A stretch of DNA of 54,449 nucleotides, taken from contig JAFYWK010000072.1 in the NCBI GenBank assembly GCA_017558065.1, forward strand, positions 1 to 54,449. Reading direction: 5' to 3'. The notes beneath the pieces were generated by a model. That model did no database searches and was not told the DNA's origin. It was given only the letters and a program-made list of their open reading frames with translations. The DNA is from Paludibacteraceae bacterium. GTDB taxonomy: Bacteria > Bacteroidota > Bacteroidia > Bacteroidales > Paludibacteraceae. The stretch's first letter is position 1. Every line of letters starts with the position of its first letter. Shown here in pieces: positions 37,038-51,636 of the stretch. The position numbers and the translations under genes are program-made.

Positions 37038-37043
37038 CACCGC

Positions 37044-37294
37044 TTTGCACTTGGTGCGGGCATTACATATTGAAAGTGTTTTCGCTGTCCTTCAAGAAAA
37101 TGTGGAAGTTTTCAAGAACTAAGGATGAACGAATGACACTCATTACTTGTATGCTTATGGCAGAGAATACATTGTTTATCAATGTGTCCTATCCCCATAA
37201 CATTCAGGTGTGGGGATTAGCATCGTTTATTTTAGTTCGGGTCATTCCACAACCTTCTTGTTGATAAGCGTGAGCAAGCCTCACACTTTTTTTT
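37044..37294 (+). ncRNA. RNA candidate C (family of three in this window)
   Basis: About 251 nt from the promoter start to a run of eight T's. A 5' hairpin GCACC..GGTGC is followed by TGTGTCCTA (37183-37191), ATAACAT, GTGTGGGG (37208-37215), GGGTC (37239), AACCT (37251) and the closing CCTCACAC (37279-37286), which pairs with GTGTGGGG. Candidate B shows the same motifs at nearly the same distances. A 91-codon ORF overlaps but has no family character. Confidence 0.6.
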
Positions 37295-37311
37295 GTATAT
37301 ATCCATACCCA

Positions 37312-37558
37312 ATTGTAAAGAAGGAGATTGCCGAAAATCCTGTAAAGAGTAGGTATCAACTAAAAACTAATAATGTTATGTATTATTTCACATTAAAGTT
37401 TGCAAACAAGTATGTAGGCGGTATGACCGCAGGTTTTACTCTCAATGTTTCATCTGAACAAAATGTTCCTTGTGGAAGAGACATTGAGAAAGCCTTAATA
37501 AATGCAGGTTTTTCCAAATCTGACGCTCAGCGATTATCAGAGCCAACTTATTGGAGTA
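37312..37558. repeat. Direct repeat, first copy (~245 bp)
   Basis: TTGTAAAGAAGGAG to ACTTATTGG, over 90 % identical by eye to 37616-37860. It covers the leader and the coding part of the gene at 37378. Confidence 0.92.
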
Positions 37559-37563
37559 GATAA
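37378..37563 (+). CDS. Small duplicated protein of element II, short copy
   Basis: 61 residues from the ATG at 37378: MYYFTLKFANKYVGGMTAGF, SSEQNVPCGRDIEKALINAG, FSKSDAQRLSEPTYWSR. It is nearly identical to the first ~59 residues of the next gene, then stops two residues after the repeat ends. Either it is a tandem duplication of the domain alone or a truncated paralogue. The family is unknown; the domain is small and mixed alpha/beta. RNA candidate C ends 84 nt upstream. The longer ORF start at 37210 would run back through RNA C and is rejected. Confidence 0.65.
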   Translation: MYYFTLKFANKYVGGMTAGFTLNVSSEQNVPCGRDIEKALINAGFSKSDAQRLSEPTYWSR

Positions 37564-37615
37564 AAACTCTCTCTCCATAACAGAAAAATAGATAAGATAG
37601 ATAAAGTAATATAAC

Positions 37616-37860
37616 TTTGTAAAGAAGGAGGATGCCGAAAATCCTATAAAGAGTAGGTATCAACTAAAAACTAATAATGTTATGTATTATTTCACATTAA
37701 AGTTTGCAAACAAGAATGTAGGTGGTATGACCGTAGGTTATACTCTCAATGTTTCATCCGAACAAAATGTTCCTTGTGGAAGAGACATTGAGAAAGCCTT
37801 AATAAATGCAGGGTTTTCCAAGTCTGACGCTCAGCGATTATCAGAGCCAACTTATTGGGA
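37616..37860. repeat. Direct repeat, second copy (~245 bp)
   Basis: Second copy of the unit at 37312-37558; it includes the leader GTAAAGAAGGAG and the N-terminal domain of the gene at 37682. A TAACTTTG box (37610-37617) sits at its start. Confidence 0.92.
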
Positions 37861-38245
37861 ATGGGAAACTGCTCAAGGAGGAGGAGGTAATAGAATATCT
37901 CAACCGACAGCCTCCTCTAATAGTAAAGGAAAGGTTCAAGACAAAGTAGCGGAAGAAGATTTAGATGATGATTACAACGAACAAAGCGATTGGTCATATA
38001 TGAGTTTTCTTGAGAAATGTGAATATATAGTTAAATTTAAATGGATAGATGATTTTTTTGATAACCTTCCCAAACGAATTCTAAATGCTATTCTATCCTT
38101 CATTTATCTAGAAATTATGGCAGTGGTTTGGTTACTGGCTTCTTTATTTTCAGAACGATGGAGAAATGCGGTATGGAGGTCTATATATAAAAGCGTAAAG
38201 TGGTTGAACGAAAAACTTGATAATTCAAATATCCTCTCAAAATAG
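37682..38245 (+). CDS. Duplicated-domain protein with a membrane segment
   Basis: 187 residues. The first 59 match the small protein at 37378. A glycine/serine/asparagine-rich linker (about 62-85) and an acidic patch (AEEDLDDDYNEQSDW) follow. A C-terminal hydrophobic helix (AILSFIYLEIMAVVWLLASLF, about 138-158) probably anchors it in the membrane, with a basic tail. A soluble paralogue plus a membrane-bound one from the same element could act as a pair, for example toxin and immunity or an exclusion system, but nothing proves this. Confidence 0.6.
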   Translation: MYYFTLKFANKNVGGMTVGYTLNVSSEQNVPCGRDIEKALINAGFSKSDAQRLSEPTYWEWETAQGGGGNRISQPTASSNSKGKVQDKVAEEDLDDDYNEQSDWSYMSFLEKCEYIVKFKWIDDFFDNLPKRILNAILSFIYLEIMAVVWLLASLFSERWRNAVWRSIYKSVKWLNEKLDNSNILSK

Positions 38246-38271
38246 TTTGATTTATTTTTAGATACTATAAG

Positions 38272-38312
38272 AAAAGAGTATGGTCTTAATTTATATAGGG
38301 TCATACTCTTTT
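38272..38312 (+). terminator. Terminator after the duplicated-domain gene
   Basis: AAAAGAGTATG / CATACTCTTTT, 11 perfect pairs with an 18-nt loop, T's after. Confidence 0.8.
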
Positions 38313-38760
38313 GTTATATTTATATTCAATTATTACAATCCCTAGTTTTTGATATGGGTAAATAAGCAACATTTCTTCACACATTAAGAGAGGCTCCAAG
38401 CGAGAAAGTTCTATAATTATTACAAAGATTTATTGTTGAGAATAATGAACTGGCAGAGAAAAAGAAGAATGTGATATAGAAGTTAAAGGGATTTTTTGAG
38501 ATGTGTTTTGGGATTATTTAAAAATGTAAAATAATAATTATTTTATTAATTATCAATTAGTTATAATTATTTTAGTATGTCGGTTTTTGGTGCATTTTTG
38601 CTATAAAAAAGTTGCACCGATGTGGGACCGATAGAATAATATGAGATGATTGAGAAGGTAAAAAGCAGATAATTTTTCCCAAAAACTCATTGTGGGTTCC
38701 TATTCTTGATGGTATGAGGGAAATATAAAAGGGGCTAAGAACATTGCAAAAATGGGCCTT
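38313..38760. other. Right-end region of element II, no gene seen
   Basis: About 450 bp of AT-rich DNA with no convincing ORF. It contains an AATAATAATTATTTTATT palindromic tract (38527-38544) and the arm-site candidate at 38587. Confidence 0.4.
38587..38600 (+). promoter_or_regulatory. Candidate integrase arm-binding site (right)
   Basis: TTGGTGCATTTTTG, the exact inverse-oriented match of 29226-29239. Confidence 0.5.
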
Positions 38761-38777
38761 AATCCCTCTCTCTCCGC
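38761..38777. other. Attachment site attR of element II
   Basis: AATCCCTCTCTCTCCGC, the tRNA-Ser 3' end. The bases before it do not form a tRNA, and a terminator follows directly. Confidence 0.85.
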
Positions 38778-38784
38778 TAAAAAG

Positions 38785-38819
38785 AAAGGAGTTCCAATAA
38801 GGAGCTCCTTTTCTTTTTT
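38785..38819 (+). terminator. Displaced terminator of tRNA-Ser (first)
   Basis: AAGGAGTTCC aataa GGAGCTCCTT (one G-U) then a T-rich tract; it directly follows attR. Confidence 0.8.
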
Positions 38820-38911
38820 TGTGAGAAGGACAGGGCCTTCTCACACCCACGGACGGGGGCTCTTATCTCGACCTAATTGGTCTCGAACGATACGCGCAAA
38901 AAATGCGCTAG

Positions 38912-38932
38912 CGAATCCCTCTCTCTCCGCAA
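38912..38932. other. Second tRNA-Ser 3' scar
   Basis: CGAATCCCTCTCTCTCCGCAA begins here; 21 bp identical to 29141-29161, longer than the match at attR. No tRNA body precedes it (38820-38911 does not fold as a tRNA). Confidence 0.75.
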
Positions 38933-38944
38933 CACAAAATGAAG

Positions 38945-38970
38945 AACGAGTCCGATAGGGCTCGTTTTTT
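38945..38970 (+). terminator. Terminator behind the second tRNA-Ser scar
   Basis: AACGAGTCC gatag GGGCTCGTT (one G-U) then TTTT. Confidence 0.8.
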
Positions 38971-39079
38971 GTATGTAGGCACATAGACATCAACTTGTTG
39001 AATGGAGATGTGCATAGATACAAAAAAAAGAGAGTTGCTCTGCAACTTCTTCATTTTGGGATGCACTGGATGCCCGTGG

Positions 39080-39132
39080 CAGAGTAAGGCATTCGAGGTG
39101 GGCGAGCGAAGCGAGGTCGGTGCCCTCGAATC
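39080..39132. repeat. Inverted third copy of the tRNA-Ser-linked palindromic repeat
   Basis: GGCATTCGAGGTGGGCGAGC continues with GAAGCGAGGTCGGTGCCCTC and GAATCCCTCTCC. It is the reverse complement of the units at 22276 and 22348, and ends in a tRNA-Ser-like GAATCCCTCTCC. Confidence 0.75.
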
Positions 39133-39165
39133 CCTCTCCCTATCAGATGCCCTCACTCCTCCACC

Positions 39166-40476
39166 CTATTCATTCAGTGCTACCAGCACGCCGACTTCAT
39201 TCCACAAGGCAAAGAGCTTGCCGTCAGAGGTACTCACCAGCAGTTCCACATGCGATTGTACCGTCACAGCCCGTAGCGCAGGATAATCTACCAGCGCAAA
39301 TTTGGCTGTTTGCACTGCCTCGTCATGATAACGATACAAGACACGCAACGTTCGGCGACTACATTCTATATCGACAATCTGGTATTCAGTTGTTGGTACT
39401 AATCCCTCCTCGCTATACCGTCGCAGTTCCGTTTCACGCTTTATCTCGTCGCTCATCTGACGTGCGCAGTTCACTAACTGGGGATCGTCCTGTTCGTGTA
39501 GCGTAACAAGTTGCTTGGGCAACAGTCTATTCAATGCATGTTCCTCTTCGGGCGTGAAAGTCAAAACATGTTTTCCATTAATCTCCTCTAATTGCCACCA
39601 GAGATTTATGCCGGTAGTCTTTCGCTCCTTGGTATGTAACAGCCGAACGGACTGGTGCTGATTAAAGAGGAGCATAAAATGTTCTGCCTGCATTACATTT
39701 TGTTGGTCTTCTATGCGCATAATATCATAGATAGCATCCGTTGTGCCGTTTTTCAGCCAAAACCACAATGTATCTCCAGCCTTATTGCTACTCGCATCGC
39801 GCCACCATTGCCACCACCTAAATGGCATAGGAGTTGTGTCTTCCTGGAAAATATCCTCTACGTATGTAGGCTCATAATACAAGCGCAACACGACAGCTCC
39901 GAAGTAGCCCATCCACCACCAGCTATCGACATCCTCTCTCTCTATTGTTTGCACCAATTGTTGCGCAGCGTCATTGGCATTGACTTGCTGGGGATAAAGT
40001 TGGTGTAAATAGGTATTGAGTTCGTTGATTACTTGCGCAGTTGCCCGCATGCCTTTTTGCTGATAGGGGTTGATATGGTTGCATTTGGCATAGAGCAAGC
40101 CCAACAAGATGTAATACAACATCCTATCCTTCCCCCAGAGCGTTTGTACCTGCAGCCAAGTGTCGTTGTCGATGCTTTGGGGTTGGGTATGTTCCTCTGG
40201 AGGTGAATCCAATCGTAACACTTCGGGCGAATTTTTCAGTTGATTGCACAAGTCCCAAACAGCAGGCAAATGAGGCAATATCTCCTCGGGCACACCAAAC
40301 AGCCTGCCAATCTCCTCCCAAAGGTGATTGACGGCTCTTTCGCCCAATGTTCCGTCTATTAGGCGTGAGATGTTCATTCTGCCCTTTTGCCCCAGCAGGC
40401 TCGCCAATCGGGTGTTGTTGGTAGCAAAAAAGCAGTGTTTGACCAATTGTTGCAATATGTCTTTGCGGTTCGTCAT
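39166..40476 (-). CDS. Unknown ~436-residue cytoplasmic protein
   Basis: 436 residues from the ATG at 40476; the -7 box at 40489-40496 rules out the ATG at 40491 and implies an almost leaderless mRNA. The N-terminus (ILQQLVKHCFFATNNTRLAS, LLGQKGRMNISRLIDG) looks like a helix-turn-helix region. The middle is tryptophan-rich (DSWWWMGYFGAV, FRWWQWWRDAS) and the C-terminus is a beta-rich domain (TLRVLYRYHDEAVQ ... TVQSHVELLVST). There is no signal peptide. I do not recognise the family; a DNA-binding regulator with a sensory C-terminal domain is possible. Confidence 0.65.
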   Translation of the reverse strand: MTNRKDILQQLVKHCFFATNNTRLASLLGQKGRMNISRLIDGTLGERAVNHLWEEIGRLFGVPEEILPHLPAVWDLCNQLKNSPEVLRLDSPPEEHTQPQSIDNDTWLQVQTLWGKDRMLYYILLGLLYAKCNHINPYQQKGMRATAQVINELNTYLHQLYPQQVNANDAAQQLVQTIEREDVDSWWWMGYFGAVVLRLYYEPTYVEDIFQEDTTPMPFRWWQWWRDASSNKAGDTLWFWLKNGTTDAIYDIMRIEDQQNVMQAEHFMLLFNQHQSVRLLHTKERKTTGINLWWQLEEINGKHVLTFTPEEEHALNRLLPKQLVTLHEQDDPQLVNCARQMSDEIKRETELRRYSEEGLVPTTEYQIVDIECSRRTLRVLYRYHDEAVQTAKFALVDYPALRAVTVQSHVELLVSTSDGKLFALWNEVGVLVALNE

Positions 40477-40488
40477 AGAAATTTCGCG

Positions 40489-40520
40489 CAAAGGTACACA
40501 AAAATTGGTGTTTATGCAAA
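40489..40520 (-). promoter_or_regulatory. Promoter of the unknown gene at 39166-40476
   Basis: Minus-strand TTTG (40520-40517), 20 bp, TACCTTTG (40496-40489). Confidence 0.75.
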
Positions 40521-40597
40521 TCCCTCTGCCATTTTTGTATCAAAGTCTTTTGGTTTGATACAAGATGACGCTTGTTAGTCCATTTTCGATACGATTC

Positions 40598-40691
40598 ATT
40601 GGCATTTTCATAATTTTTAACTAATTTTGCAGCGAAAACGAGAAATAATGCTCCTAAAATTTTGCTCTTTGAAAAAAATGTAGTAATTTTG
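40598..40691 (+). promoter_or_regulatory. Two tandem promoters of the 41089-42649 operon
   Basis: ATTG (40598-40601), 20 bp, TAATTTTG (40622-40629); then TTTG (40661-40664), 19 bp, TAATTTTG (40684-40691). They would give leaders of about 400-460 nt. The remaining stretch to 41088 holds no credible gene. Confidence 0.5.
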
Positions 40692-40952
40692 TAGGGTTTT
40701 GGGGAGAAATCCAAAACAGAAAGCGTAATTACTTTTGACCCAACAAACAGAAATCTGGTACATTTCATCAACAGAAGGGCAAAGAGTAAGCGTTTCCGCA
40801 TATATGAATTCTATGAGAAATCATATACAGCGTGGAGCATTATTTCTCTTTGTTTCTGTAGGGTTTACCAGAGCCTTGTTTGTGACGAAGGAAAAAATAC
40901 TCTGCGCTTTTTTGTATTTAATCTTTCTGTTTCCTTGTCGGTTTCGAGACAA

Positions 40953-40985
40953 ACACGGCAACGACACGGCAACGACACGGCAACG
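40953..40985. repeat. 11-bp tandem repeat, three copies
   Basis: ACACGGCAACG three times head to tail, in the long leader before 41089. Confidence 0.85.
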
Positions 40986-41088
40986 AAAGCACTTTTTACT
41001 AAGGAATCAAATACAAAATTCGCAAGAAAAGGGAAGATACTATACATTTTTAAACCATTGAAAAATAAACTGATAAACACAAAAGAAT

Positions 41089-41316
41089 ATGACTTATATG
41101 TACGAAGTAGTCGTTACGCGCGACTTGAACACAGGCAGGTATCGTCTGCCAGCAGGGCTTTCTGTTAGAGTTCCCCACGATCAAATGTCAAATCCTTTGT
41201 ACTCGGTAGAGGGAAAACGTCGTATTGCCGAAGCATTTGCCATGCAATGTGGCATAGACATGAGTAGTGCAATCCACTATATCAGCACTGCCTACATGGA
41301 GGCTAAGAGAATGTAA
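41089..41316 (+). CDS. Small unknown protein (75 residues)
   Basis: 75 residues: MTYMYEVVVTRDLNTGRYRL, PAGLSVRVPHDQM, then two helices with RRIAEAFAMQCGIDMSSAIH. No cysteine cluster, signal or membrane part. Codon use fits its neighbours. It is the first gene behind the tandem promoters and precedes the EcsC-like gene by 72 bp. Family not recognised; small predicted beta-hairpin plus helices. Confidence 0.5.
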   Translation: MTYMYEVVVTRDLNTGRYRLPAGLSVRVPHDQMSNPLYSVEGKRRIAEAFAMQCGIDMSSAIHYISTAYMEAKRM

Positions 41317-41388
41317 TTTACATATTTATATATATAATAAGAGCAAATCATTAAACATGCATTATAAACCATTTAAATTATTTTTATT

Positions 41389-42117
41389 ATGAAAGAAATC
41401 AATACTGTTCAATTATGGAACAAGACGCTTCAAGCAGCAATGAAATTACCTATGGTTGCCGTTAATCGTGCAGAGTTTATAACCAAGGAGCTTGCACCAT
41501 TCTGTAGCGAGGAACAAATACAAATAGCAATTGATGGCAAACCATCTGAAGTTATCTCAATCGATAAAATTAAACAAATTGCAAATGGTGTTATAAAAAA
41601 TCACTTGACAGCGGTAACATTAACATCTACACTTGCTGGTATTCCTGGCGGCTGGTTCATTGCAGGAACAATTCCAGCAGACTTGGCACAATTCTATGGT
41701 CACGTTTTATCTATGGCTCAAAAACTTCTATACTTATATGGTACGCCAAACATGCAAAACGATAGTGGAAAATTAACTGAAGAGGCAACTCATATTCTAA
41801 CTTTGTCTATTGGTGTTATGTCTGGAGCACAAGTAGCAATATCAACTCTCAACCAAGTTCTGAATATGCTTGCACAGACCATTACCAAACAATTACCTAA
41901 ACAGGCTCTTACCAAATCGGGTATCTATGTTGCCTGCAAAGCAGTAGCTAAATGGCTTGGTGTTGAACTGACAAAAAAATCTTTTTCACAAGGTGTAGGT
42001 AAGGCTCTTCCATTAGTAGGAGCTCCTGTCTCTGGCGCACTGACTTATTGGACATTCCGTCCTATGGCTAATAAATTTAAAAAATACTTGGATAGTAATT
42101 TTGAGGTATTAAAGTAA
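41389..42117 (+). CDS. EcsC-like membrane-associated protein
   Basis: 242 residues. Glycine/alanine-rich hydrophobic stretches (AVTLTSTLAGIPGGWFIAGT, about 76-95; GKALPLVGAPVSGALTYWTF, about 204-223) and the segment PADLAQFYGHVLSMAQKLLYLYG resemble the EcsC family, whose members carry G-rich helices and 'a.iaylYG'. Function is poorly known; they are membrane-associated and often found in mobile or secretion contexts. The stop overlaps the next ATG (ATGA at 42116), so translation is coupled to the membrane protein at 42117. Confidence 0.45.
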   Translation: MKEINTVQLWNKTLQAAMKLPMVAVNRAEFITKELAPFCSEEQIQIAIDGKPSEVISIDKIKQIANGVIKNHLTAVTLTSTLAGIPGGWFIAGTIPADLAQFYGHVLSMAQKLLYLYGTPNMQNDSGKLTEEATHILTLSIGVMSGAQVAISTLNQVLNMLAQTITKQLPKQALTKSGIYVACKAVAKWLGVELTKKSFSQGVGKALPLVGAPVSGALTYWTFRPMANKFKKYLDSNFEVLK

Positions 42118-42305
42118 TGAGAAAAGTTTGTATTATCCTACTTATCTTCTATTTTTTAGGATTACTCACATTTTTATTGATTGTTGGATGGGATACCTAT
42201 TTCCATTGGTGGAGACACCATACCTTTGCATATATTCTATGTGAGGTGATAGGACTATTATTGGCTATAGGGGCATTTTCATCTGACAAAGAAAAAAATC
42301 AATGA
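42117..42305 (+). CDS. Small two-helix membrane protein
   Basis: 62 residues with two hydrophobic helices (IILLIFYFLGLLTFLLIVGW, about 5-24; AYILCEVIGLLLAIGAF, about 38-54) and an aromatic, histidine-containing loop (YFHWWRHHTF) between them. Unknown family. It is translationally coupled on both sides, overlapping the EcsC-like gene by 1 bp and the next gene by 4 bp, which strongly supports that it is real. Confidence 0.65.
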   Translation: MRKVCIILLIFYFLGLLTFLLIVGWDTYFHWWRHHTFAYILCEVIGLLLAIGAFSSDKEKNQ

Positions 42306-42649
42306 CCTCCACTCTAACTTTTCCACAGCCTGCAAGGCGGGTGTTTGCTTGTGTGAAACATGTCTTGCAGACAACGGATGACTTTAAACGTGTGCGGTAC
42401 GATGAGGACAATTTTGTCCTCACCGCATCGCATGGCTGGCATCTTATTCCTACAGGACAAGACATCCGCATTCGCGTGGTAGCCAAAGGCACGCAAACCA
42501 CAGATGTTATCATTGAGAGCAAGGCGAAGGTATTCATTAACCTACTTGCCATTCCACAAAACAAACGCAATGTGCAAGAACTCTCCAACTATATCCAAAA
42601 TCGTGTTTATAAACTCTGCTCCGACGAGGAGATAAAACTGCGCAAGTAA
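42302..42649 (+). CDS. Unknown small beta-rich protein of the EcsC-like operon
   Basis: 115 residues: TFPQPARRVFACVKHVLQTT starts the domain, followed by alternating strands (NFVLTASHGWHLIPTGQDIR, IRVVAKGTQTTDVIIESKAK) and a C-terminal helix. The pattern (helix, five strands, helix) suggests a START/SRPBCC-like or TBP-like fold, but I cannot name the family. It starts 4 bp inside the preceding membrane protein gene, so the three are one unit. Confidence 0.6.
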   Translation: MTSTLTFPQPARRVFACVKHVLQTTDDFKRVRYDEDNFVLTASHGWHLIPTGQDIRIRVVAKGTQTTDVIIESKAKVFINLLAIPQNKRNVQELSNYIQNRVYKLCSDEEIKLRK

Positions 42650-42829
42650 CTCAAGGGGAAAAGAGTTACCCAGTTCTCGCTCGTATGTGTTAAGCGAAGC
42701 GACTATCAAGCGGCGCACCGCGCCGTGAGAAAAACCTCCAACTAATAGATTGCTGGGAGGAAGTTGCTAAGGAATGAGCTGCACTAACTACTCGGCAACT
42801 ACTTTACTTCGTGGGTAAGCATAGTGCTA
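42650..42829. other. Intergenic region with hairpins
   Basis: No gene. Contains CGGCGC acc GCGCCG (42713-42727) and CCTCC..GGGAGG (42737-42758), either of which might end transcription from the operon to the left. Confidence 0.4.
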
Positions 42830-43325
42830 TTAGCGAAGGGCATCAATACCTGCGGAGAGGGCAAAGAGCGTGACATTCCAGTTGATAGTTACCTCGTTGG
42901 ACGCATAACTGGGTTGGAAATCCAAATAACACTCGTCCGCCGACACATTCTTAGGATAGTGTACCCCATCAATGCCTTCGTCTTGGCGCTCGCGGTTAGG
43001 ACCTCCAGCAAGGAAACCAGGGAGTGTACCTTTAGCATGGCTGAAAGACAAACGATGGTGAGGATCTTGAGTAGGACGCATGCCAAAACCCGTGACATAG
43101 CAGAAGCCCGTAGCATTCTGACCAAGGATATGATTGAGGCAGCGCTCGGCATTCACCAGATACTTATCCTCGCCCGTTAAACGATAGGCATACAGACACT
43201 CCACACCACGCCAACAACAACCCTCGGAGTTACATCCCCAAAAGAAATCTTCTTCTCGGTTGCCATAAGGCGAACGGATGAAATCACCATACATATTGCG
43301 GCTGATACTTTTCACGGAACCCTGA
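42830..43325 (-). pseudogene. C-terminal fragment of a GH9 cellulase/endoglucanase
   Basis: Reading from about 43325: DFFWGCNSEGCCWRGVECLY, then NHILGQNATGFCYVTGFGMR, DPHHRLSFSHAKGTLPGFLA, GGPNRERQD, and DECYLDFQPSYASNEVTINW. These are the last ~165 residues of a GH9 catalytic domain, including the PHHR and the D..YASNE motif with the catalytic acid. The N-terminal two thirds are missing, and upstream the frame runs into antisense of an AraC-type gene, so the enzyme cannot be functional. It once degraded beta-glucans such as cellulose. Confidence 0.8.
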
Positions 43326-43876
43326 TAGATAAGAGTGCGCTTGCATCTATTCGGTATATGCTGGAGAGAGCACAACGAGGACTGGCATTTCCCGAGGCTG
43401 CCATTCAGATTGTACGCGAAGATATTGTCAATCTCGCCCACAGTACCGATAGTTTTGCTTCCGTTATTCGCTTACTGAACTTGCTGTATCGTCTCTCGCT
43501 TGTCAAGGATGCAAAAGAACTATCATCTTCATCATTCATTGATGCTGAAGAGAGTATTGAGGATGATCGCATTCGTTTGATAAAAGACTATGTTGCCAAA
43601 CATTATATGCACGATATACACCTAAAAGAATTGGCAGACATGGTCTGCATGTCTGCCGAGTCTTTTTCGAGGTTTTTCCGTCATCGCACAGGTCGTACAC
43701 CTAATCGCTATATTATAGACTACCGTTTGGGGATTGCAGCGCGGTTACTACTCCAAACAAAATTAGCAGTCTCTGAGATAGGCTTCTCATGCGGATTTAA
43801 CACCCTCAGCCATTTCAATTGACTATTCCGTGAATCAAAAGGCTGCACACCATCCGAATTCCGCGAACGCTATTAA
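43310..43876 (+). pseudogene. AraC-family regulator, truncated and with a nonsense codon
   Basis: The frame gives GTLIDKSALASIRYMLERAQ, RGLAFPE, then the double HTH: DYVAKHYMHDIHLKELADMV, SAESFSRFFRHRTGRTPNRY, EIGFSCGFNTLSHFN. A TGA at 43820-43822 falls where the family has an Arg (CGA), after which the frame continues LFRESKGCTPSEFRERY to the stop at 43874. The N-terminal ligand-binding half is also missing: the left edge abuts the GH9 fragment. Both genes lost their 5' parts at the same head-to-head junction. Confidence 0.8.
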
Positions 43877-44939: not shown

Positions 44940-44941
44940 TG

Positions 44942-45004
44942 AGGGGAATGAGGGAGTGAGGGAAATACACCCCTCACTTCCCTCACTCCCTCACTTCCCT
45001 CATT
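44942..45004. repeat. GAGTGAGGGAA repeats forming an inverted repeat
   Basis: GAATGAGGGAGTGAGGGAA on the left pairs with TTCCCTCACTCCCTCACTTC on the right; the unit TGAGGGA/TCCCTCA is repeated six or more times. It may also terminate transcription of the preceding gene. Confidence 0.75.
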
Positions 45005-45300
45005 CTATATTTTAATAGAATAGATGCTATAGATATGATAGGATATAGATGTGCTACGGAAGGTATAGTGATGTCTTCTTATGAACCCGTCAAGAACCCG
45101 TCATGAACCCGTAATTGATCGCTGATTGGTGGGGGAGTTTTGACTAAAGACAACATCAATAATGGGGAGACAATTGTCAACAATATAGACAATGAGAATC
45201 AACAATAAAAACAATGCAAGGCATATCCACTACCAAAATTATAAACAATTATAGTATATTAACAAAAATTATCTTATTAACAACTTAAACAACATAAACG
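45005..45300. other. Intergenic region, nothing identified
   Basis: AT-rich; contains a direct repeat AAGAACCCGTCA/ATGAACCCGT (45085-45110). No gene, tRNA or clear promoter. Confidence 0.4.
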
Positions 45301-45567
45301 ATGGCACGATTAGAATTAATAGCAATGCTTGTAAAAGCAACAGGAAAAATCTTTGGTCGCAAATGCGACATGTGGCTCATGGAGCGATATGGTACCAAAT
45401 ATACCGCTCACAGCAATCACCCACGTGATTACAAGAAGAATCCGCAGTCCAAAGCGGAGAAAGAATGCACTTTGCGTTTGGCTGCCGCCTCGAAGGCATA
45501 CAACCAATTGGTCAAAGGTTCGCCCGAGTGGCTTGCGCTGGAGAAAGCATGGCGCGTCATGAAGTAG
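45301..45567 (+). CDS. Small basic unknown protein
   Basis: 88 residues, basic: MARLELIAMLVKATGKIFGR, KCDMWLMERYGTKYTAHSNH, PRDYKKNPQSKAEKE. No signal or membrane segment. Small basic proteins of this kind accompany DUF3987-type genes in Bacteroidetes, so it may be another remnant or surviving part of the same old element. The start is the only ATG in frame near AACAACATAAACG. Confidence 0.5.
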   Translation: MARLELIAMLVKATGKIFGRKCDMWLMERYGTKYTAHSNHPRDYKKNPQSKAEKECTLRLAAASKAYNQLVKGSPEWLALEKAWRVMK

Positions 45568-45633
45568 CGCTTTTGCGGTTGGTGGGATTGATATCCGCTG
45601 AAGGCAAATGGTAGAGATAGGTGATGTCAAGCA

Positions 45634-47019
45634 TTAGCGTGTAGCTTGATAGATACGCGGAGCTATCTCGCTGTTGTCCATCCAACCTGTGAAACGATCA
45701 GCGCCTACACCCACGGCGAAGACAGGCACCGCTGTGGCTGAATGGCCATGTGTGGTCCAACCCAAGCCCGCCTTGTGGTTCACCAGTTCTTTGGCTTTCG
45801 CCGCCAAAGCGTTGATGTCGGCATAGAGCGTCTTGAGCGACGCTTGCTGGCGCATCATATTATTGAAAGCGTCCTGCAAAACAGCCTCTTCTTCGGCTAT
45901 CACCGACAAGTCGCCAAACAAACCTGTGTTCGCTGCCAAGAACGCTTTGACCTGCTCCCAAGTGAGTTGGTCGGTATATTGCTGGCAGAGTGCCGTGAGG
46001 CGAGCAGAAAGGGTGTCGGACGAGCACTTCTGGTGTGCCAAGCGCTCCAAACGCAACGAATGGCCATTGCCCAAGATCATACCACCCGTCTCATGGTCTG
46101 CCGTCACCACAATGAGGGTCTCATCGGGGTGCTGCTCATAGAAGCGATATGCCACCTGTATCGCGCGGTCGAAATCTAATACCTCTTGGATATTCGTTGC
46201 CCCATCGTTGCCGTGACCTGCATAGTCAATCTTACCGCCCTCAGCCATCATGAAGAAACGGTCGTGCTTAGAGAGATGCTGGATAGCCACGTCCACTATC
46301 TGCGCCAAGTTGAGGTCGCCCTCTTGCTGGTCAATGGCATATGGCAATGCCTCTGCGCCCTTGTTAGGATTATCCAGATTGACCTGTGGCACGAGCAGCA
46401 TTTTCTTTTTCTTCAGGTTCTTTTGCGCCTCAGCATAGCTGCCCACGAGGGCATAACCATTCTTCTTGCAGAGGTCATAGAGGTTAGGCGCCGTAGCATC
46501 GTCTTTATTTATAGGGCGTTGGAAACCGCCACCGCCGAAGAAATCGAAGTTCGACTCCGCGAGGTGGGTGCCGATGAGATAATAATTGCTGCGTTTCTCG
46601 GCATGCGCGTAGTGCGAAGCGGGGGTAGCGTGGTCCACAGGCACGGTGGACATGATACCAATACCCCACCCCTCTTTCTTCAGGTCGTATGCCACGCTAT
46701 AGGCGGGTGCGCCGTCAGGCGTTTGGCCGATCATACCGTTGTTGGTCTTCTTGCCCGAAGCGAGGCAAGTGCCTGCCGCAGCGGAGTCGGTGATACCATC
46801 CGAAGCGGAGAAAGTGGCAGCTTGACCCGAATAAGGGAACTGGGTCATGAGCAGCGGTACACGACCGTGTTTGCCTTGGAGCGCTGCCTGGTACATCTCG
46901 GCGGTGAGCACTTGGTTAGGTCCCATGCCATCGCCAATGAAAAAGAATACATACTTGGCCTGAGCCATTATCGCTACTGCCAAACAGAGTAGCCATACGG
47001 AGAGAATAACGCGTTTCAT
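45634..47019 (-). CDS. phoA: Secreted alkaline phosphatase
   Basis: 461 residues with a signal peptide (MKRVILSVWLLCLAVAIMAQ). Motifs of the PhoA family: FFFIGDGMGPNQV near 25 (metal Asp), GITDSAAAGTCLASGKKTNN near 75 (nucleophile Ser in DSAAAGT), VDHATPASHYAH near 127, MMAEGGKIDYAGHGND near 250 (Glu, Asp, His), VVTADHETGGM near 305 (Asp-His) and WTTHGHSATAVPVFA near 425 (His). It hydrolyses phosphomonoesters in the periplasm. The ATG is preceded 14 bp upstream by repeat module c. Probably in an operon with sulP and rluA. Confidence 0.93.
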   Translation of the reverse strand: MKRVILSVWLLCLAVAIMAQAKYVFFFIGDGMGPNQVLTAEMYQAALQGKHGRVPLLMTQFPYSGQAATFSASDGITDSAAAGTCLASGKKTNNGMIGQTPDGAPAYSVAYDLKKEGWGIGIMSTVPVDHATPASHYAHAEKRSNYYLIGTHLAESNFDFFGGGGFQRPINKDDATAPNLYDLCKKNGYALVGSYAEAQKNLKKKKMLLVPQVNLDNPNKGAEALPYAIDQQEGDLNLAQIVDVAIQHLSKHDRFFMMAEGGKIDYAGHGNDGATNIQEVLDFDRAIQVAYRFYEQHPDETLIVVTADHETGGMILGNGHSLRLERLAHQKCSSDTLSARLTALCQQYTDQLTWEQVKAFLAANTGLFGDLSVIAEEEAVLQDAFNNMMRQQASLKTLYADINALAAKAKELVNHKAGLGWTTHGHSATAVPVFAVGVGADRFTGWMDNSEIAPRIYQATR

Positions 47020-47032
47020 GATTTTCTGTTTT

Positions 47033-47125
47033 TGAGGTTAGAGGCTAAAGGTTAAAGGCTAAAGGCGGGTAATATGCGGCAAAGCCGCTGTTTCTTGCCT
47101 TTCGCCTAATCGCCTATCGCCTTTT
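47033..47125. repeat. Repeat module with GCGGC hairpin, copy c
   Basis: GAGGTTAGAGGCTAAAGGTT, AAAGGCTAAAGGCGGGTAAT, ATGCGGCaaaGCCGCTGTTT, CTTGCCTTTCGCCTAATCGC. Nearly identical to copy a (27284-27380). It fills the gap between sulP and phoA. Confidence 0.88.
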
Positions 47126-47128
47126 TTC

Positions 47129-48859
47129 CTAATCACCTGATTTTACTATTTCCTCGGCACGAGCGAGGGCACCATTGATATGGTTGCGCACGTTCTCGCG
47201 ACCGATCTTGTTGACTAATCCAGCTTTGTCCAGGGTGTTGAACACTTTCTCATTGACACCAGAGAGCACCAGTTGTATGCCATCGCGCTGCAAGCGCATA
47301 TGCAGTTGCTCCAAGTTGTGAATACCTGTGGAGTCGATAAACGACACCTTACGCATACGGATGATACGCACTTTCTGTTCGCCACTATGCGTGCGGCGGC
47401 TGATGTCGTCGAACTTGTTGGCGATACCGAAGAAGTATGGGCCATCAATCTCATACACCTCTGTAAAAGGCGGAATCTTCAGGGTCTCAAGGTCTTGACC
47501 GTGCAAGCGCAGGTCGTTGTTGTGCGTTGGGTCGAGTTCGTTGCTGAAAGACTGCACCGTAGTGGACTCGTTGGTACGCTTGATGAAGAGAATAACCGCC
47601 AACAGCAGTCCCACCTCGATGGCGATAGTGAGGTCGAAGAGCACGGTGAGAATGAAAGTAACAAGCATCACCAGGAAGTCGGACTTAGGGTTCTTGGCGA
47701 GCCATACGATGGAGCGCCACTCCGACATGTTGTAACTCACCATGATCAATATACCCGCCAGACACGCCATAGGTATCAGTCCGACCAGCGGACCAAAGAA
47801 GAGCAGCACCGCCATGAGCACAATAGCGTGCACGATACCTGCCACAGGGGTCTTGCCACCGTTGTTGATATTGGTCATGGTACGCGCGATAGCGCCCGTA
47901 GCAGGGATACCGCCGAAGAATGGCACCACCACGTTCGCCACACCCTGCGCAATCAGTTCGGTGTTGGAGTTGTGTCGATCGCCAATCACACCATCTGCCA
48001 CCATAGCCGACAAGAGGGACTCTATAGCGCCCAGCATAGCTATGGTGAAAGCCGCAGGGAAAAGACTCTGCACCAAACTCCAGAAGGTCTGACCCTCTGC
48101 CAGTTCGAAAGATGGCAAGTGTGGCGCTGGAATACCGTTAGGGATGGTATAGAGGTCGCCGATAGTCTTGATACTCTCCACGCCTGCATAACGGCGCAGC
48201 AGCCATGTAACGAGTGTCATCAGGATGATAACTACCAAGGAACCAGGGATTTTCTTGCTGATGCGGGGCATAAAAATCAATATCGCCAACGAGGTGATAC
48301 CTATGCCGAATGCCCACCAGTTAATATCCTTCCAGTGCTCGGCGTAGCATACCCATTTGTGAATAAAATCAGCAGGCACGCCCTGGATGTTCATACCAAA
48401 GAGGTCGTTCATCTGCGTGGAGAAAATGGTCAGCGCAATACCTGCCGTGAAGCCCACAATCACAGGATAAGGGACAAACTTGATGATACTACCCAACTTG
48501 AATACGCCCATGAGAATAAGCATAATGCCCGCCATAATAGTGGCGATAAGCAAGCCCGTGAGTCCGTGCTGCTGAATCACGCCATAAATGATGACAATGA
48601 ACGCACCCGTAGGACCGCCAATCTGCACCTTGCTACCGCCGAAAGCAGAGATGATAAATCCTGCAATGATAGCCGTGATCAGACCTTCCGCAGGTCCGAC
48701 GCCCGAGGCGATACCGAAGGCGATAGCCAATGGGATAGCCACCACGCCGACAATCAGTCCGGCGATGGAGTCTTGCATCAGTTTTTGTTTGGTGTAGCTC
48801 TTCAGCGTGTGGAAGAGTTTAGGCTGAAAAACATTTTTGAATGAAAATGACTGTTTCAT
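47129..48859 (-). CDS. SulP-family anion transporter with STAS domain
   Basis: 576 residues. The membrane part (about 28-420, ten or more helices) contains DSIAGLIVGVVAIPLAIAFG, GPTGAFIVIIYGVIQQHGLT and GGIPATGAIARTMTNINNGG, the SLC26/SulP signatures. The C-terminal STAS domain (about 460-560) has VRIIRMRKVSFIDSTGIHNL with the DSTG loop. Family members carry sulfate, bicarbonate or similar anions with protons or sodium; the substrate is not decidable here. It begins 3 bp after rluA's stop, so the two are co-transcribed. Confidence 0.92.
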   Translation of the reverse strand: MKQSFSFKNVFQPKLFHTLKSYTKQKLMQDSIAGLIVGVVAIPLAIAFGIASGVGPAEGLITAIIAGFIISAFGGSKVQIGGPTGAFIVIIYGVIQQHGLTGLLIATIMAGIMLILMGVFKLGSIIKFVPYPVIVGFTAGIALTIFSTQMNDLFGMNIQGVPADFIHKWVCYAEHWKDINWWAFGIGITSLAILIFMPRISKKIPGSLVVIILMTLVTWLLRRYAGVESIKTIGDLYTIPNGIPAPHLPSFELAEGQTFWSLVQSLFPAAFTIAMLGAIESLLSAMVADGVIGDRHNSNTELIAQGVANVVVPFFGGIPATGAIARTMTNINNGGKTPVAGIVHAIVLMAVLLFFGPLVGLIPMACLAGILIMVSYNMSEWRSIVWLAKNPKSDFLVMLVTFILTVLFDLTIAIEVGLLLAVILFIKRTNESTTVQSFSNELDPTHNNDLRLHGQDLETLKIPPFTEVYEIDGPYFFGIANKFDDISRRTHSGEQKVRIIRMRKVSFIDSTGIHNLEQLHMRLQRDGIQLVLSGVNEKVFNTLDKAGLVNKIGRENVRNHINGALARAEEIVKSGD

Positions 48860-48862
48860 ATC

Positions 48863-49780
48863 TTAATCGTTAAATAGTCGAAGCATTTCTTTGGGGGCTG
48901 CCGCTTCAAAACGCACCTTTTTCTCGGTCATTGGATGAATAAACTCCAATACTTTAGCATGCAGGCAGAGGCGGTCAACGGGCGAATACTCGTTGCCGTG
49001 TCCATACTTGCGGTCGCCAATCACGGGATGACCCACGCTCTGCATGTGCACACGAATCTGATTGGTGCGACCCGTCTCGAGGTTCAGTTCTATGAGAGAC
49101 ATGGCTAAATCCGGGCTCCCGAGTCCGGCTTCCAATTCTTTGAGCACCTTGTAGTGCGTCACGGCTTTTTGTCCGCCGTCGTCTTTAGGCGACGAATAGA
49201 CCATGCCTGTGTGTGGATCTTCGGTCAGCCAAGTGGTGATGGTGCCTTCTTTCTGCTCAAACTGTCCCTCCACGAGAGCAACATACGTGCGTTTGGTGAC
49301 CAATTGTCGCCAATAGGTGCGCATATACTCTTGCAGTTCAGGGGATTTGGCAAAAACCAACACACCACTGGTCTCGCGGTCAAGGCGGTGCACCACATGC
49401 ACGGTGTTGCGTTTGGATTCTTTCTTGACATACTCCTTGAGGATAGAGTACGCCGTCATCTCGCTGCTCTTAGGGTTGTATGGTACGGTGAGCAGTCCGT
49501 TTTTCTTCTCCACGATGATGAGCGCATCATCTTCGTAGATGATACGCAGTTTGGGATGACGAAGCTCAATATTACCCCTACCCTGTAGCACTTGTACCAC
49601 ATCGCCCGCCTTGAGCGGAGTGTCGTGACGAGTTTGAATACCTGCATTGACGGTCACACGACGTTGACTGAGCAATTGTTTGACGCTGGTGCGGGTCATA
49701 CCGCCCAGTTTAGAGAGCAGAAAGGGCATCAATTCTGCCGCTGCTTCCACTCGAAAAGATGTATCTTGTTTGCGTTTCAT
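48863..49780 (-). CDS. RluA-family pseudouridine synthase with S4 domain
   Basis: 305 residues from the ATG at 49780; the promoter -7 box at 49803-49810 excludes the longer ORF. An S4 RNA-binding domain (TRTSVKQLLSQRRVTVNAGI) is followed by the catalytic domain with VHRLDRETSGVLVFAKS near 142, the HRLDxxTSG motif holding the catalytic Asp, plus LETGRTNQIRVHMQSVGHPV, IGDRKYGHG and RLCLHAK. It isomerises uridine in rRNA or tRNA. Which position is not clear from sequence. First gene of the rluA-sulP-phoA unit. Confidence 0.92.
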   Translation of the reverse strand: MKRKQDTSFRVEAAAELMPFLLSKLGGMTRTSVKQLLSQRRVTVNAGIQTRHDTPLKAGDVVQVLQGRGNIELRHPKLRIIYEDDALIIVEKKNGLLTVPYNPKSSEMTAYSILKEYVKKESKRNTVHVVHRLDRETSGVLVFAKSPELQEYMRTYWRQLVTKRTYVALVEGQFEQKEGTITTWLTEDPHTGMVYSSPKDDGGQKAVTHYKVLKELEAGLGSPDLAMSLIELNLETGRTNQIRVHMQSVGHPVIGDRKYGHGNEYSPVDRLCLHAKVLEFIHPMTEKKVRFEAAAPKEMLRLFND

Positions 49781-49802
49781 TCGTTTGTTTGGAATTTGGG
49801 TG

Positions 49803-49834
49803 CAAAGGTACAAAAAAAAATGTATATGAACAAG
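49803..49834 (-). promoter_or_regulatory. Promoter of the rluA-sulP-phoA unit
   Basis: Minus-strand CTTG (49834-49831), 20 bp, TACCTTTG (49810-49803). Confidence 0.7.
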
Positions 49835-50059
49835 AAAAGTTTACTTTTGTTGCATAGGCTACATTTTTTTGCTGTAGCTTCGAGGTGAATCACATCGGCA
49901 AGGCGGCTTCGAAGGTAGTATTTTGTACTGAATATGCAATAGTAGAGAGCAGGGAATGCCTAATTTATAGCGATTTTAGCGAATAATCACGAAATTTCTC
50001 TGTTTCCTGCATAAAGGAAATCCCCTCCGCAAGAAGAAAGAGAGAAGATAGAGAAGAAA

Positions 50060-50097
50060 ACTCACCCTGCAAATCAGTAGACTTGCAGGGTGAGTTG
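50060..50097 (-). terminator. Terminator of the Fib_succ_major gene
   Basis: AACTCACCCTGCAA / TTGCAGGGTGAGTT, 14 perfect pairs with a 10-nt loop, T-rich on the minus strand. The rest of 49835-50125 holds no gene. Confidence 0.9.
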
Positions 50098-50125
50098 TAA
50101 AAAAGCGGAAAACGAGTGTTAATTT

Positions 50126-50806
50126 CTAAGGGCATACTGGTCGCACATATAGTCCATAGCAGCGAAAGTTGCTGGTCCTCTCCCTGCCACTCGAATCGAA
50201 GAACAAGCGGTACGCGTAGTCCGGGTAGTCCGTATCGAGCGAACTCGACCAGTAGTTGCCGTATTCGAGGGGATAGCCTGTGACGGGGAGGAAAATACTA
50301 TTGCCGTTGGCTCCTGTCACCTTATAACCTATTACACCATTTTGGGTAGTCCTTTTCCAAGTGCATTCGGTGCACAATTCGTCTTGCTCAGCCTTGGTTG
50401 GCATACGCCAAGCACCACCCCAATTCGCAGTAGCGGCATCGTCAGAGGCTTCGAGGACAGTTTTATTATCTACATTACCAAAATAGCGGTTAGTACAGTA
50501 TTTTATTTGGGTACCGGAACTGCCATTGTACCATTTATAAGTACTCCAATCATAAGTTTCCTTAGGTTGTGTTTCTCCCCAAGCGAAACAATCGCCGTAC
50601 TCCTCTGGACTGTTTGCACCTACATTGCAAGTCGCCCATTTGACACTCAATCCAAGATCTACGTACTCGTGAACTGACTCCTTTGGCGCTACCATACTAA
50701 TACTATCTACCTTTGCTACAGTACCATCACTGTAATAAATATAAAACTGTGCAGAAGCACTAATTGTCATCATTAAGGCGACGACTGCCATAAAAATCTT
50801 TTTCAT
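50126..50806 (-). CDS. Secreted Fib_succ_major-domain protein
   Basis: 226 residues with a signal peptide (MKKIFMAVVALMMTISASAQ). A short N-terminal strand segment (FYIYYSDGTVAKVDSISMVA) is followed by the domain HEYVDLGLSVKWATCNVGAN, CFAWGETQPKETYDW, GGAWRMPTKAEQDEL and GNYWSSSLDTDYPDYAYRLF ending YGLYVRPVCP. This is the Fibrobacter-succinogenes-type major paralogous domain common in gut Bacteroidales, a lectin-like (FGE/DUF1566-related) fold of unknown ligand. Likely exported to the cell surface. A strong terminator follows. Confidence 0.88.
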   Translation of the reverse strand: MKKIFMAVVALMMTISASAQFYIYYSDGTVAKVDSISMVAPKESVHEYVDLGLSVKWATCNVGANSPEEYGDCFAWGETQPKETYDWSTYKWYNGSSGTQIKYCTNRYFGNVDNKTVLEASDDAATANWGGAWRMPTKAEQDELCTECTWKRTTQNGVIGYKVTGANGNSIFLPVTGYPLEYGNYWSSSLDTDYPDYAYRLFFDSSGRERTSNFRCYGLYVRPVCP

Positions 50807-50875
50807 ATTGTTGTGTTTTATTGTTTAAAAGTTTCACGCGCAAAGCGCTTGTTTCAGAGTTTCAAAGTTTCAATT

Positions 50876-51274
50876 TTAGACTTTAAGTCCCATCACATCG
50901 TACCAAACTTGTTTGCCATCAGGCATAGTGGCACGAATAAACAATTTGCCATTGAGCAACACTTTGTCTGTTTTGGCTTTGTCCAAAGACGACACTTCTT
51001 CCAAAATGGTAGTTGTATCATCTTGCTTTACCATAGCAAAGGTGATACTACGAACACCTGCCACATCTGTTTCAGGCACACTCACAGTAAGACTCCCCTT
51101 GCTGCATAACACACTAAAGTCTGTCACAGAAGTGTAGTCCAATTGTACCACCTGCTTGCTACCGTCTGCCATTTGTACCACCACAGAAGGTACAAGTTCG
51201 GAATCTTGAGCAAGAATGGGTACACTTACACTACATAAGAACAGACTTAGTAGAAATAAGGATAACTTATTCAT
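50876..51274 (-). CDS. Small secreted protein with C-terminal tail
   Basis: 132 residues with a signal peptide (LSLFLLSLFLCSVSVPILAQ). The mature part begins with VVVQMADGSKQVVQLDYTSV and TDFSVL, a 'use of numerical or symbol strings' type motif seen in Bacteroidales secreted proteins. It ends in KVLLNGKLFIRATMPDGKQV, WYDVMGLKV, the same tail pattern as at 619-888 and 12868-16890 (here 'Y-D-V-M-G-L-K-V'). The function is unknown; it may be an exported binding or anchoring module. RNA candidate B ends 50 nt upstream of its start. Confidence 0.75.
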   Translation of the reverse strand: MNKLSLFLLSLFLCSVSVPILAQDSELVPSVVVQMADGSKQVVQLDYTSVTDFSVLCSKGSLTVSVPETDVAGVRSITFAMVKQDDTTTILEEVSSLDKAKTDKVLLNGKLFIRATMPDGKQVWYDVMGLKV

Positions 51275-51325
51275 AAACTTGTTTTTTGTGGGAAGTTGGC
51301 TCCAAACGCCCCGTTGGTATAAATA

Positions 51326-51600
51326 TACAAAAAGCGTGGAACCTTACCTTTGCTTATTCTCAAAATCGAGGTTCCAGCAAGACCCTACACACAAGAATAA
51401 ACAATGAATGCCCACGCCGATATGTTTATCGCTGTAGGACACAACGAATTAAACACACCAATGGGCATTTATCGCTCTCTTGCTTTGGGTGTGAGAAATT
51501 TGCTGGATTTCGATTTTCCAAAACAAGCGCCAATAAACGCCTTTTTATTATGTCTGCTACCCTTCGCCGCTGATGTGCAGACATCCCCAGCGCAGGTTCA
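51326..51600 (-). ncRNA. RNA candidate B (family of three in this window)
   Basis: About 275 nt from the start implied by the promoter at 51606-51636 to a U-tract. RNA-strand motifs in order: 5' hairpin CAGCG..CGCTG, TGTGTCCTA (51443-51435), ATAAACAT, GGCGTGGG (51418-51411), GGGTC (51385), AACCT (12 nt after the start of GGGTC, exactly as in C), AATAAGC, and CCACGC TTTTT, which pairs with GCGTGG. There is no credible ORF on either strand. Candidate C (37044-37294) has the same order and spacing. Confidence 0.6.
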
Positions 51601-51605
51601 CGCTG

Positions 51606-51636
51606 CAAAGGTACTGCTTTATTTTGAATTGAGCAA
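51606..51636 (-). promoter_or_regulatory. Promoter of RNA candidate B
   Basis: Minus-strand CTTG (51637-51634), 20 bp, TACCTTTG (51613-51606). Confidence 0.7.

What the first reader, a model, noticed from the sequence alone, without database searches (positions are those of the whole stretch)
37044..51600. A three-member structured RNA family with a fixed promoter-RNA-terminator-gene layout
Segments 9202-9418 (minus), 37044-37294 (plus) and 51326-51600 (minus) each begin at a consensus promoter, run 217-275 nt without a credible ORF and end in a U-tract. The final stem is formed with an upstream GnGTGGG segment 55-75 nt earlier. B and C share in order: a 5' hairpin after TACCTTTGCA, TGTGTCCTA, ATAA(A)CAT, GG(C/T)GTGGG, GGGTC, AACCT, (A/G)ATAAGC. 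Spacings agree: TGTGTCCTA to GGGTC is 56 and 58 nt; GGGTC to AACCT is 12 nt in both. An unrelated gene follows 50-95 nt later in all three. Two of the three are on integrated elements. I know of no named family with these motifs, but could not search Rfam.
Basis: partly seen in the sequence, partly recalled or inferred. Interest (0 to 1): 0.85.

Follow-up and report, generated by a model that had tools for sequence, protein, structure and literature searches.

The report
Gene-leader RNA with matching variable passwords
The segments are real members of a large, apparently undescribed family of gene-leader RNAs in Bacteroidetes, in which each copy carries its own variable sequence words twice, once as such and once as the exact complement, so that the RNA can pair with itself; what this controls is still a hypothesis.

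Summary
It matches all 37 genomes searched of the window's genus and 8 of 24 from other families of the order. No Rfam family matched convincingly.

Each copy has a 5' hairpin and a 3' hairpin ending in a U-tract; their loops hold three hypervariable words complementary to one another (v1/v2 cells 92.5% paired; covariation 0.731 against 0.197 shuffled). v1 differs between copies even where the rest is at least 90% identical.

A co-oriented ORF starts within 260 nt after the U-tract in 170 of 186 copies, median 59 nt, mirror control 51 of 178; a promoter -7 box lies in that gap in only 10 of 163. Best reading (about 0.5): an attenuator-type leader whose terminator is gated by v:v' pairing, the words giving each locus its own identity. 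The mechanism and the reason for the hypervariability are inferred; there are no expression data here.

The parts
9197..9418 (-). RNA copy A (model match 9197-9366; v1 9336-9341, v2 9326-9332, v3 9311-9316)
   Evidence: R2 E 1.1e-9 without A in training; words strictly complementary
9423..9432 (-). promoter-like -7 box TATCTTTGCA of A
9130..9166 (-). DUF805b-like leader element (RF02914) between A and its gene
   Evidence: 31.7 bits, below the gathering score 35.6, E 5.1e-7
8406..9107 (-). first ORF after A, 233 aa, lipoprotein-like N-terminus by eye, no Pfam family
37044..37297 (+). RNA copy B (model match 37071-37297; v1 37093-37098, v2 37101-37107, v3 37116-37122; complements 37255-37260, 37245-37251, 37232-37238)
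   Evidence: R2 E 1.3e-9 without B in training
37030..37039 (+). promoter-like -7 box TACCTTTGCA of B
37321..37355 (+). DUF805b element (RF02914) after B
   Evidence: 43.8 bits, above gathering
37378..37563 (+). first ORF after B, 61 aa, no Pfam family
40718..40918 (+).
   Evidence: R2 E 1.3e-15, not in training
40684..40691 (+). promoter-like -7 box TAATTTTG of D
41089..41316 (+). first ATG-started ORF after D, 75 aa, followed by a 242-aa ORF 41389-42117 without Pfam family
51323..51600 (-). RNA copy C (model match 51323-51545; v1 51510-51517, v2 51500-51507; v1' 51362-51369, v2' 51373-51380)
   Evidence: R2 E 2.2e-51, C is in the training set; word positions
51604..51613 (-). promoter-like -7 box TACCTTTGCA of C
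50876..51274 (-). first ORF after C, 132 aa, secreted-looking by eye, no Pfam family

Best explanation
A family of cis-acting leader RNAs that attenuate transcription of the gene just downstream. SHOWN by comparison: transcription box, then a 5' hairpin (HP1), a variable middle hairpin and a 3' hairpin (HP2) that ends in a U-tract, then a co-oriented gene about 60 nt on; the loops of HP1 (v1, v2, v3) are exact complements of the loops of HP2; the stems around the words can pair in two mutually exclusive ways, locally (HP1 and HP2, the latter a terminator-like hairpin) or long-range (one rod in which all words pair and the 3' strand ACGCUUUUU pairs with AAAAGGCGU at the start). INFERRED: HP2 plus U-tract stops transcription; when v:v' pairing zips HP1 and HP2 together, the terminator hairpin is dismantled and the gene is read; the words make this locus-specific, so that related leaders in one cell (or a terminated leader acting in trans) do not pair across loci. 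The family as a real structured leader RNA is close to certain (about 0.97); attenuation gated by v:v' pairing is given 0.5.
For: Layout: co-oriented ORF (60 aa or more) within 260 nt in 170 of 186 copies, median 59 nt, mirror control 51 of 178; TAnnTTTG in the 130 nt upstream in 142 of 197 against 20 of 197 on the reverse strand. The same box lies between U-tract and ATG in 10 of 163, against 120 of 159 upstream; the two-box form in 1 of 163 against 104 of 159, so the gene seems to depend on read-through. Word pairing: 92.5% of cells, 198 two-sided changes against 59.0 shuffled, slid controls at most 48.0%; 71 of 76 against 2 of 76 shuffled. Local hairpins: 91.2% paired, 29 pairs with two-sided change against 17.5 shuffled. 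In 59 copies of nine genomes' sets with other arm sequences, the four arm pairings beat cross-genome partners in 45 (a:b), 36 (c:d), 40 (a:d) and 43 (b:c) of 59. Middle-to-3' terminator pairing: median score 18 against 12 with the 3' strand shuffled; higher in 157, lower in 29, of 196. G-U pairs are 0.4% in v2 and 4.3% in v1 against 5.0-26.0% in the other helices of 120 copies, as expected if short loop-loop pairing must be exact.
Against: No RNA-seq, no 3'-end data, no reporter result. Covariation of the long-range arms is weak: 88.1% against 86.3% shuffled, and pairs with two-sided change were reached by 46 of 500 shuffles. The rod with v:v' is the lowest-energy fold (median gap to the MFE 0.0 in 186 copies), and its base, AAAAGGCG/CGCUUUUU, could itself terminate, so which state is 'off' is not shown; the alternative was not a true local-hairpin fold, so no energy balance was measured. 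55 of 197 copies lack the upstream box, and several sit after an upstream gene. Plain attenuation does not explain the hypervariability. Identical v1 is not rarer within genomes (1 of 169 pairs) than between them (32 of 6971), so avoidance inside a genome is not demonstrated.
Confidence: 0.5

Rival explanations
1. A trans-acting small RNA family: the 200-280 nt RNA is an independent sRNA with its own terminator, and its words pair with RNAs or DNA elsewhere; the downstream gene is incidental.
For: Own promoter box and U-tract; hypervariable words; the same words recur in different genomes beside unrelated genes.
Against: The exact v1-N(0-30)-v2 pattern of C occurs in the own genome only in its own two arms. 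Word pairs are not clearly enriched within the fetched flanks (17 hits against 10.0 expected, much of the excess from one tandem copy, L151). The downstream gene is nearly always co-oriented and close and usually lacks a box of its own.
Confidence: 0.17
2. The words act at the DNA level: the element is a folded-DNA or inverted-repeat site (recombination site, inverton, integron-attC-like or miniature mobile element), and the RNA structure is secondary.
For: Words nearly free of G-T pairs; in 7 pairs with the same 24-nt word stretch, the only BLASTN hit covers roughly the RNA unit, with unrelated flanks; truncated and chimeric copies.
Against: G-U pairs are common in the other helices (up to 26%), typical of RNA. 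The inner segment kept one orientation in the 120 aligned copies, against inversion. Orientation towards the gene is fixed and a promoter box precedes. No recombinase family turned up in the 10 representative downstream proteins scanned.
Confidence: 0.15
3. A guide RNA with two loops, working like the bridge RNA of IS110 elements: HP1 and HP2 each bind a DNA strand of a target.
For: Two stem-loops, each with variable 5' and 3' internal-loop sides; units found beside unrelated flanks.
Against: In bridge RNAs the two loops read different sites (recalled); here the loops are complements of each other. No IS110-type recombinase among the downstream Pfam matches seen, and no target for C found. I did not search the genomes for IS110 recombinases.
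Confidence: 0.04
4. Neutral structural RNA: the words are ordinary helices drifting by compensatory change, with no identity function.
For: Every word change is matched by its partner; copies with the same words exist by descent.
Against: v1 is as different in pairs with at least 90% identical backbone (mean identity 0.48 within, 0.43 between genomes) as in distant pairs, while in some pairs 24 nt of words stay identical with only about 80% identity elsewhere (L025/L126, L027/L198); almost no G-U intermediates.
Confidence: 0.14

Closest known systems
DUF805b RNA (Rfam RF02914)
   Same: A known Bacteroidetes leader element; lies directly after B and, below threshold, after A, and within about 110 nt after the RNA in 4 of 20 loci scanned (5 of 20 contain one).
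   Different: 35 nt, a separate element downstream of the RNA described here; other copies carry other short leaders.
Attenuator leaders (T-box, riboswitches) in general
   Same: Promoter-proximal structured RNA, mutually exclusive pairings, U-tract, gene close downstream.
   Different: No conserved ligand pocket recognised; three hypervariable words per copy that are self-complementary; downstream genes in 81 sequence families (159 ORFs).
Plasmid replication-control RNAs with loop-loop or pseudoknot pairing (recalled, no call)
   Same: Short, strictly paired, hypervariable loops that set specificity between related RNAs.
   Different: There the partner is an antisense RNA from the other strand; here both partners lie on the same sense RNA, and the elements are chromosomal leaders.
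Bridge RNA of IS110 elements (recalled, no call)
   Same: Two stem-loops with variable internal loops.
   Different: Loops complementary to each other; no recombinase gene seen beside the copies examined.
Palindromic candidate RNAs of human microbiomes, e.g. HMP2_4205 (PMC8040213, passages seen)
   Same: Bacteroidetes, palindromic, predicted terminators; could be fragments of this family.
   Different: 132 bp or less; no hypervariable self-complementary words described in the passages seen; its alignments are in supplements I could not open, so overlap is untested.

Membership tests
6S RNA / 6S-Flavo (RF01685) / Bacteroidales-1 (RF01693) / Flavo-1 (RF01705) | match to the Rfam covariance model | tested here: not met
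   No match to these families at gathering on the window, at E<=10 on A, B and C or at E<=0.5 on 20 loci with copies from other families; family names from PMC2864571 (passages)
DUF805b (RF02914) | match to the 35-nt model within the RNA | tested here: not met
   matches lie downstream of the RNA, not in it
Known riboswitch or T-box classes in Rfam | match to a curated model | tested here: not met
   none at gathering; only chance-level matches at E 0.16-8.7 over A, B, C
Attenuator-type leader (mechanism class) | structured leader and U-tract between promoter and a co-oriented gene | tested here: met
   170 of 186 copies, controls 51 of 178; promoter box absent from the gap in 153 of 163
Attenuator-type leader (mechanism class) | two mutually exclusive conserved folds, one with the terminator | tested here: inconclusive
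   both sets of arms pair above controls, long-range arms only weakly
Attenuator-type leader (mechanism class) | conditional termination and read-through in the cell | not testable with these tools
   needs transcript-end data
IS110 bridge RNA | recombinase gene adjacent to the RNA | tested here: not met
   no recombinase family among the first downstream proteins scanned: 4 in the window and 10 representatives; not tested genome-wide
Invertible promoter (inverton) | inner segment found in both orientations | tested here: not met
   one orientation in the 120 aligned copies; no raw reads examined
Type III toxin-antitoxin (ToxIN) | RNA followed by a toxN gene | tested here: not met
   no ToxN Pfam match in the 20 window and representative proteins scanned; downstream ORFs fall in 81 families

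The most novel reading that the evidence does not exclude
An RNA password system: each leader carries a unique three-word key and its exact complement, and the gene is read only if the two halves match, so every locus in a genome with dozens of related leaders is regulated on its own channel, possibly by its own terminated leader acting in trans (a chromosomal counterpart of plasmid incompatibility). The alternation of within-hairpin and between-hairpin segments (about 6-8, 5 and 7 bp) even resembles the paranemic crossover used in nucleic-acid nanotechnology (recalled), which would make it a natural example.
Probability: 0.25. Interest if true: 0.93.

Novelty: new variant of a known kind. Interest (0 to 1): 0.82.

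Why it matters
A leader RNA present in up to about 29 matches per genome across gut Bacteroidales and scattered in the wider phylum, sitting ahead of accessory and surface genes, would be a major regulatory layer not in Rfam. The hypervariable yet strictly self-complementary words are unusual: they suggest that RNA leaders can carry identity tags, and they make a sharp test possible, because swapping or mismatching the words has a clear predicted effect. It would also give a ready-made set of naturally orthogonal RNA switches for Bacteroides engineering.

Tried and rejected
Rfam at gathering and permissive thresholds gave only tRNAs, DUF805b, a group II intron piece in L249 away from the RNA, and chance-level matches. 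Plasmid collection: no match for C; exact core pattern in viral contigs: 0; neither excludes diverged copies. Inverton: rejected, inner segment in one orientation in 120 aligned copies. Word targets: exact v1-v2 pattern of C only in its own arms; flanks 17 hits against 10.0 expected, not convincing. Orphan 5' halves L033 and L029 acting on a 3' half elsewhere: no matching half found in their (88-89% complete) genomes beyond their own arm. A first model R1 was set aside because A and B were in its training set and its structure had only 21 pairs. Energy comparison of the two folds was set aside because the 'B' constraint left long-range pairs in place. Within-genome avoidance of shared words: not supported (1 of 169 against 32 of 6971 pairs). 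Rows dropped: one search kept 158 distinct copies of the 213 5'-half hits (identical 45-nt stretches and short ends removed), of which 134 score above 44 and 24 do not (truncated, chimeric, contig ends, a run of N, weak); the alignments use 120 and 45 of the copies that paired well, so the percentages describe well-formed copies; one search uses 59 of 76.

Literature: searches (listings) showed no paper describing this family; passages only were seen of PMC9723704, PMC8040213, PMC2864571 and PMC7366714. The 2017 collection of 224 candidate RNAs (recalled) and supplementary alignments were not available, so prior description cannot be excluded.
Full report
What was checked. The three segments were read on their own strands. 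Each starts 14 nt or so after a Bacteroidetes-like -7 box, runs over a structured stretch and ends in a U-tract; the first ORF begins about 52 (C), 84 (B) and 90 nt (A) later. The motif spacings given for B and C recount correctly. Rfam finds only tRNAs and two DUF805b elements at gathering in the window, the latter downstream of the RNA; permissive scans of A, B and C add a sub-threshold DUF805b after A and chance-level matches.

How large the family is. BLASTN with C finds 15 matches in the own genome, five nearly or fully full-length at 84% identity or more, and matches in 20 of 61 relatives. A covariance model, R2, from 45 copies without A, B or D then finds C (E 2.2e-51, trained on), D at 40718-40918 (1.3e-15), A (1.1e-9) and B (1.3e-9) in the window. 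It also scores the antisense of C (6.2e-9), because the element is palindromic, so match counts can include antisense matches. Over 61 genomes it matches 45 at E<=1e-3: all 37 of the genus (1 to 29 matches; G024 and G036 only weakly) and 8 of 24 from other families, with only 36 candidates per genome scored. With more candidates scored, seven of those eight other-family genomes gave 1 to 25 matches. In a phylum sample 11 of 148 genomes match at E<=1e-5, one being the own genome, with only 15 candidates scored each; two of the others belong to another class.

The paired words. In 158 distinct copies a finder for three nested helices scored above 44 in 134; the other 24 are truncated, chimeric, cut by contig ends or N, or weak. 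In 76 further matches, mostly from other families and including A-D, 71 have at least 17 strictly Watson-Crick word bases against 2 of 76 shuffled sequences. On 45 aligned copies the two main word helices are 92.5% paired (shuffled 63.7%; slid partners 27.1-48.0%), with 198 two-sided changes (shuffled 59.0) and a covariation score of 0.731 (0.197). In 120 copies G-U pairs make up 0.4% of v2 and 4.3% of v1, but 5.0-26.0% of the other helices. v2 comes from a small set of words (such as TCTGGTA, TCCGGAA, TCTAGCA, TCCTGCA, CTTCGCA), v1 from a wide one.

Hypervariability. Across 120 copies from 64 genomes, v1 identity does not depend on identity of the rest: 0.43 between and 0.48 within genomes for pairs with at least 90% identical backbone, and 0.39-0.56 in the other classes; none of the 27 within-genome pairs in the top class shares v1. 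Yet 23 groups of copies share the same 24-nt word stretch, many in different genomes with unrelated first genes. In 7 pairs of the 20 groups compared the only detected similarity is the RNA unit, 80-98% identical (L003/L123, L163/L165, L077/L190, L099/L192, L150/L192, L041/L060, L025/L126); other pairs share more, up to kilobases (L138/L147, L142/L177). So words behave as discrete types, kept exactly or replaced wholesale. Against a simple avoidance rule, identical v1 is no rarer within genomes (1 of 169 pairs) than between (32 of 6971).

Structure. RNAalifold on the 120-copy alignment gives one long rod with all words paired and the start AAAAGGCGU closing on ACGCUUUUU; on the 45-copy alignment it gives two local hairpins, HP1 and HP2, the second ending in the U-tract. 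Both are supported: local hairpins 91.2% paired, 29 pairs with two-sided change against 17.5 shuffled; long-range arms 88.1% against 86.3%, with weak two-sided support. In 59 copies with varied arm sequences, own partners beat cross-genome partners in 45, 36, 40 and 43 of 59 for the four arm pairings. The middle GGCGUGG segment fits the terminal strand (median 18 against 12 shuffled; 157 higher, 29 lower of 196). The rod holds the minimum free energy, or nearly so, in the 186 copies folded (median gap 0.0). Either the two folds alternate, or HP1 and HP2 stand side by side with their loops kissing; the data do not decide.

Layout and genes. In 170 of 186 copies a co-oriented ORF of 60 aa or more starts within 260 nt of the U-tract (median 59 nt), against 51 of 178 in the mirrored control; TAnnTTTG lies upstream in 142 of 197 against 20 on the reverse strand, and in the gap before the gene in only 10 of 163. 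159 first ORFs fall into 81 families. Representatives are surface or envelope proteins (DUF4988 with collagen repeats, Por_Secre_tail, glycosyltransferase 2, MBOAT) or a radical-SAM protein, and several have no Pfam family. Some copies follow directly after an upstream gene.

Broken copies. Seven copies (L060, L105, L109 near 5496, L121, L139, L143, L198) have a 5' half and a 3' half with different words, read by eye; the L143 3' half fits the L019 5' half. They may be recombinants or assembly chimeras. Others are 5' halves joined to a gene, including DUF1016-, RhuM- and ORF6N-like ones by eye.

Mechanism. The position, the missing gap promoter and the competing pairings favour an attenuating leader in which word pairing decides between terminator and read-through. 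That the words are exact, diverse and typed suggests identity, either to keep dozens of related leaders from pairing with each other or to let a terminated leader act on its own locus only. These last steps are inference. No target for the words of C was found elsewhere in the own genome.

Known or new. No Rfam family matches, and the literature searches listed under Tried and rejected showed no description; the supplementary alignments of earlier surveys could not be opened, so an earlier unnamed appearance remains possible. I file it as a new RNA family and a new variant of the attenuator-leader kind, and keep the password reading as the bold case.

Noticed in passing
   Followed up: yes
L060, L105, L109 (near 5496), L121, L139, L143, L198: Copies whose 5' and 3' halves carry different words; some halves fit another locus (L143 3' half fits L019 5' half). 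Recombination or assembly chimeras.
   Followed up: partly
L022, L029, L033, L039, L042, L109 (near 4475), L128, L181 (near 237): 5' half of the RNA joined directly to other sequence or a gene (DUF1016-, RhuM-, ORF6N-like by eye), often breaking just after v2.
   Followed up: partly
after the U-tract in many copies, e.g. L025, L026, L028, L083 and L003, L016: Short recurring leader motifs other than DUF805b: AAAAGTTGCGCCCGACAC and GGGGCGTTTGGAGCCAACTTCCCAC, both unnamed here.
   Followed up: no
upstream of the RNA, e.g. L027, L165, L192: Tandem small hairpins such as CGTCACTCACTGACGTTAAACAG and CGCTGGCACCGACAGCGTAAAAA; 16 of 201 copies by simple patterns.
   Followed up: partly
L005, L016, L047, 5' region: A similar insert (GCTACAATGCTACACCATTCTACACAACG) replaces the tip of the 5' hairpin in copies of two genomes.
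   Followed up: no
window 3896-5762: tRNA-Gly and two tRNA-Leu genes beside a serine recombinase gene, a likely integration site.
   Followed up: no
L249 207-282: Group II intron match (65.6 bits, above gathering) about 1.2 kb upstream of an RNA copy.
   Followed up: no
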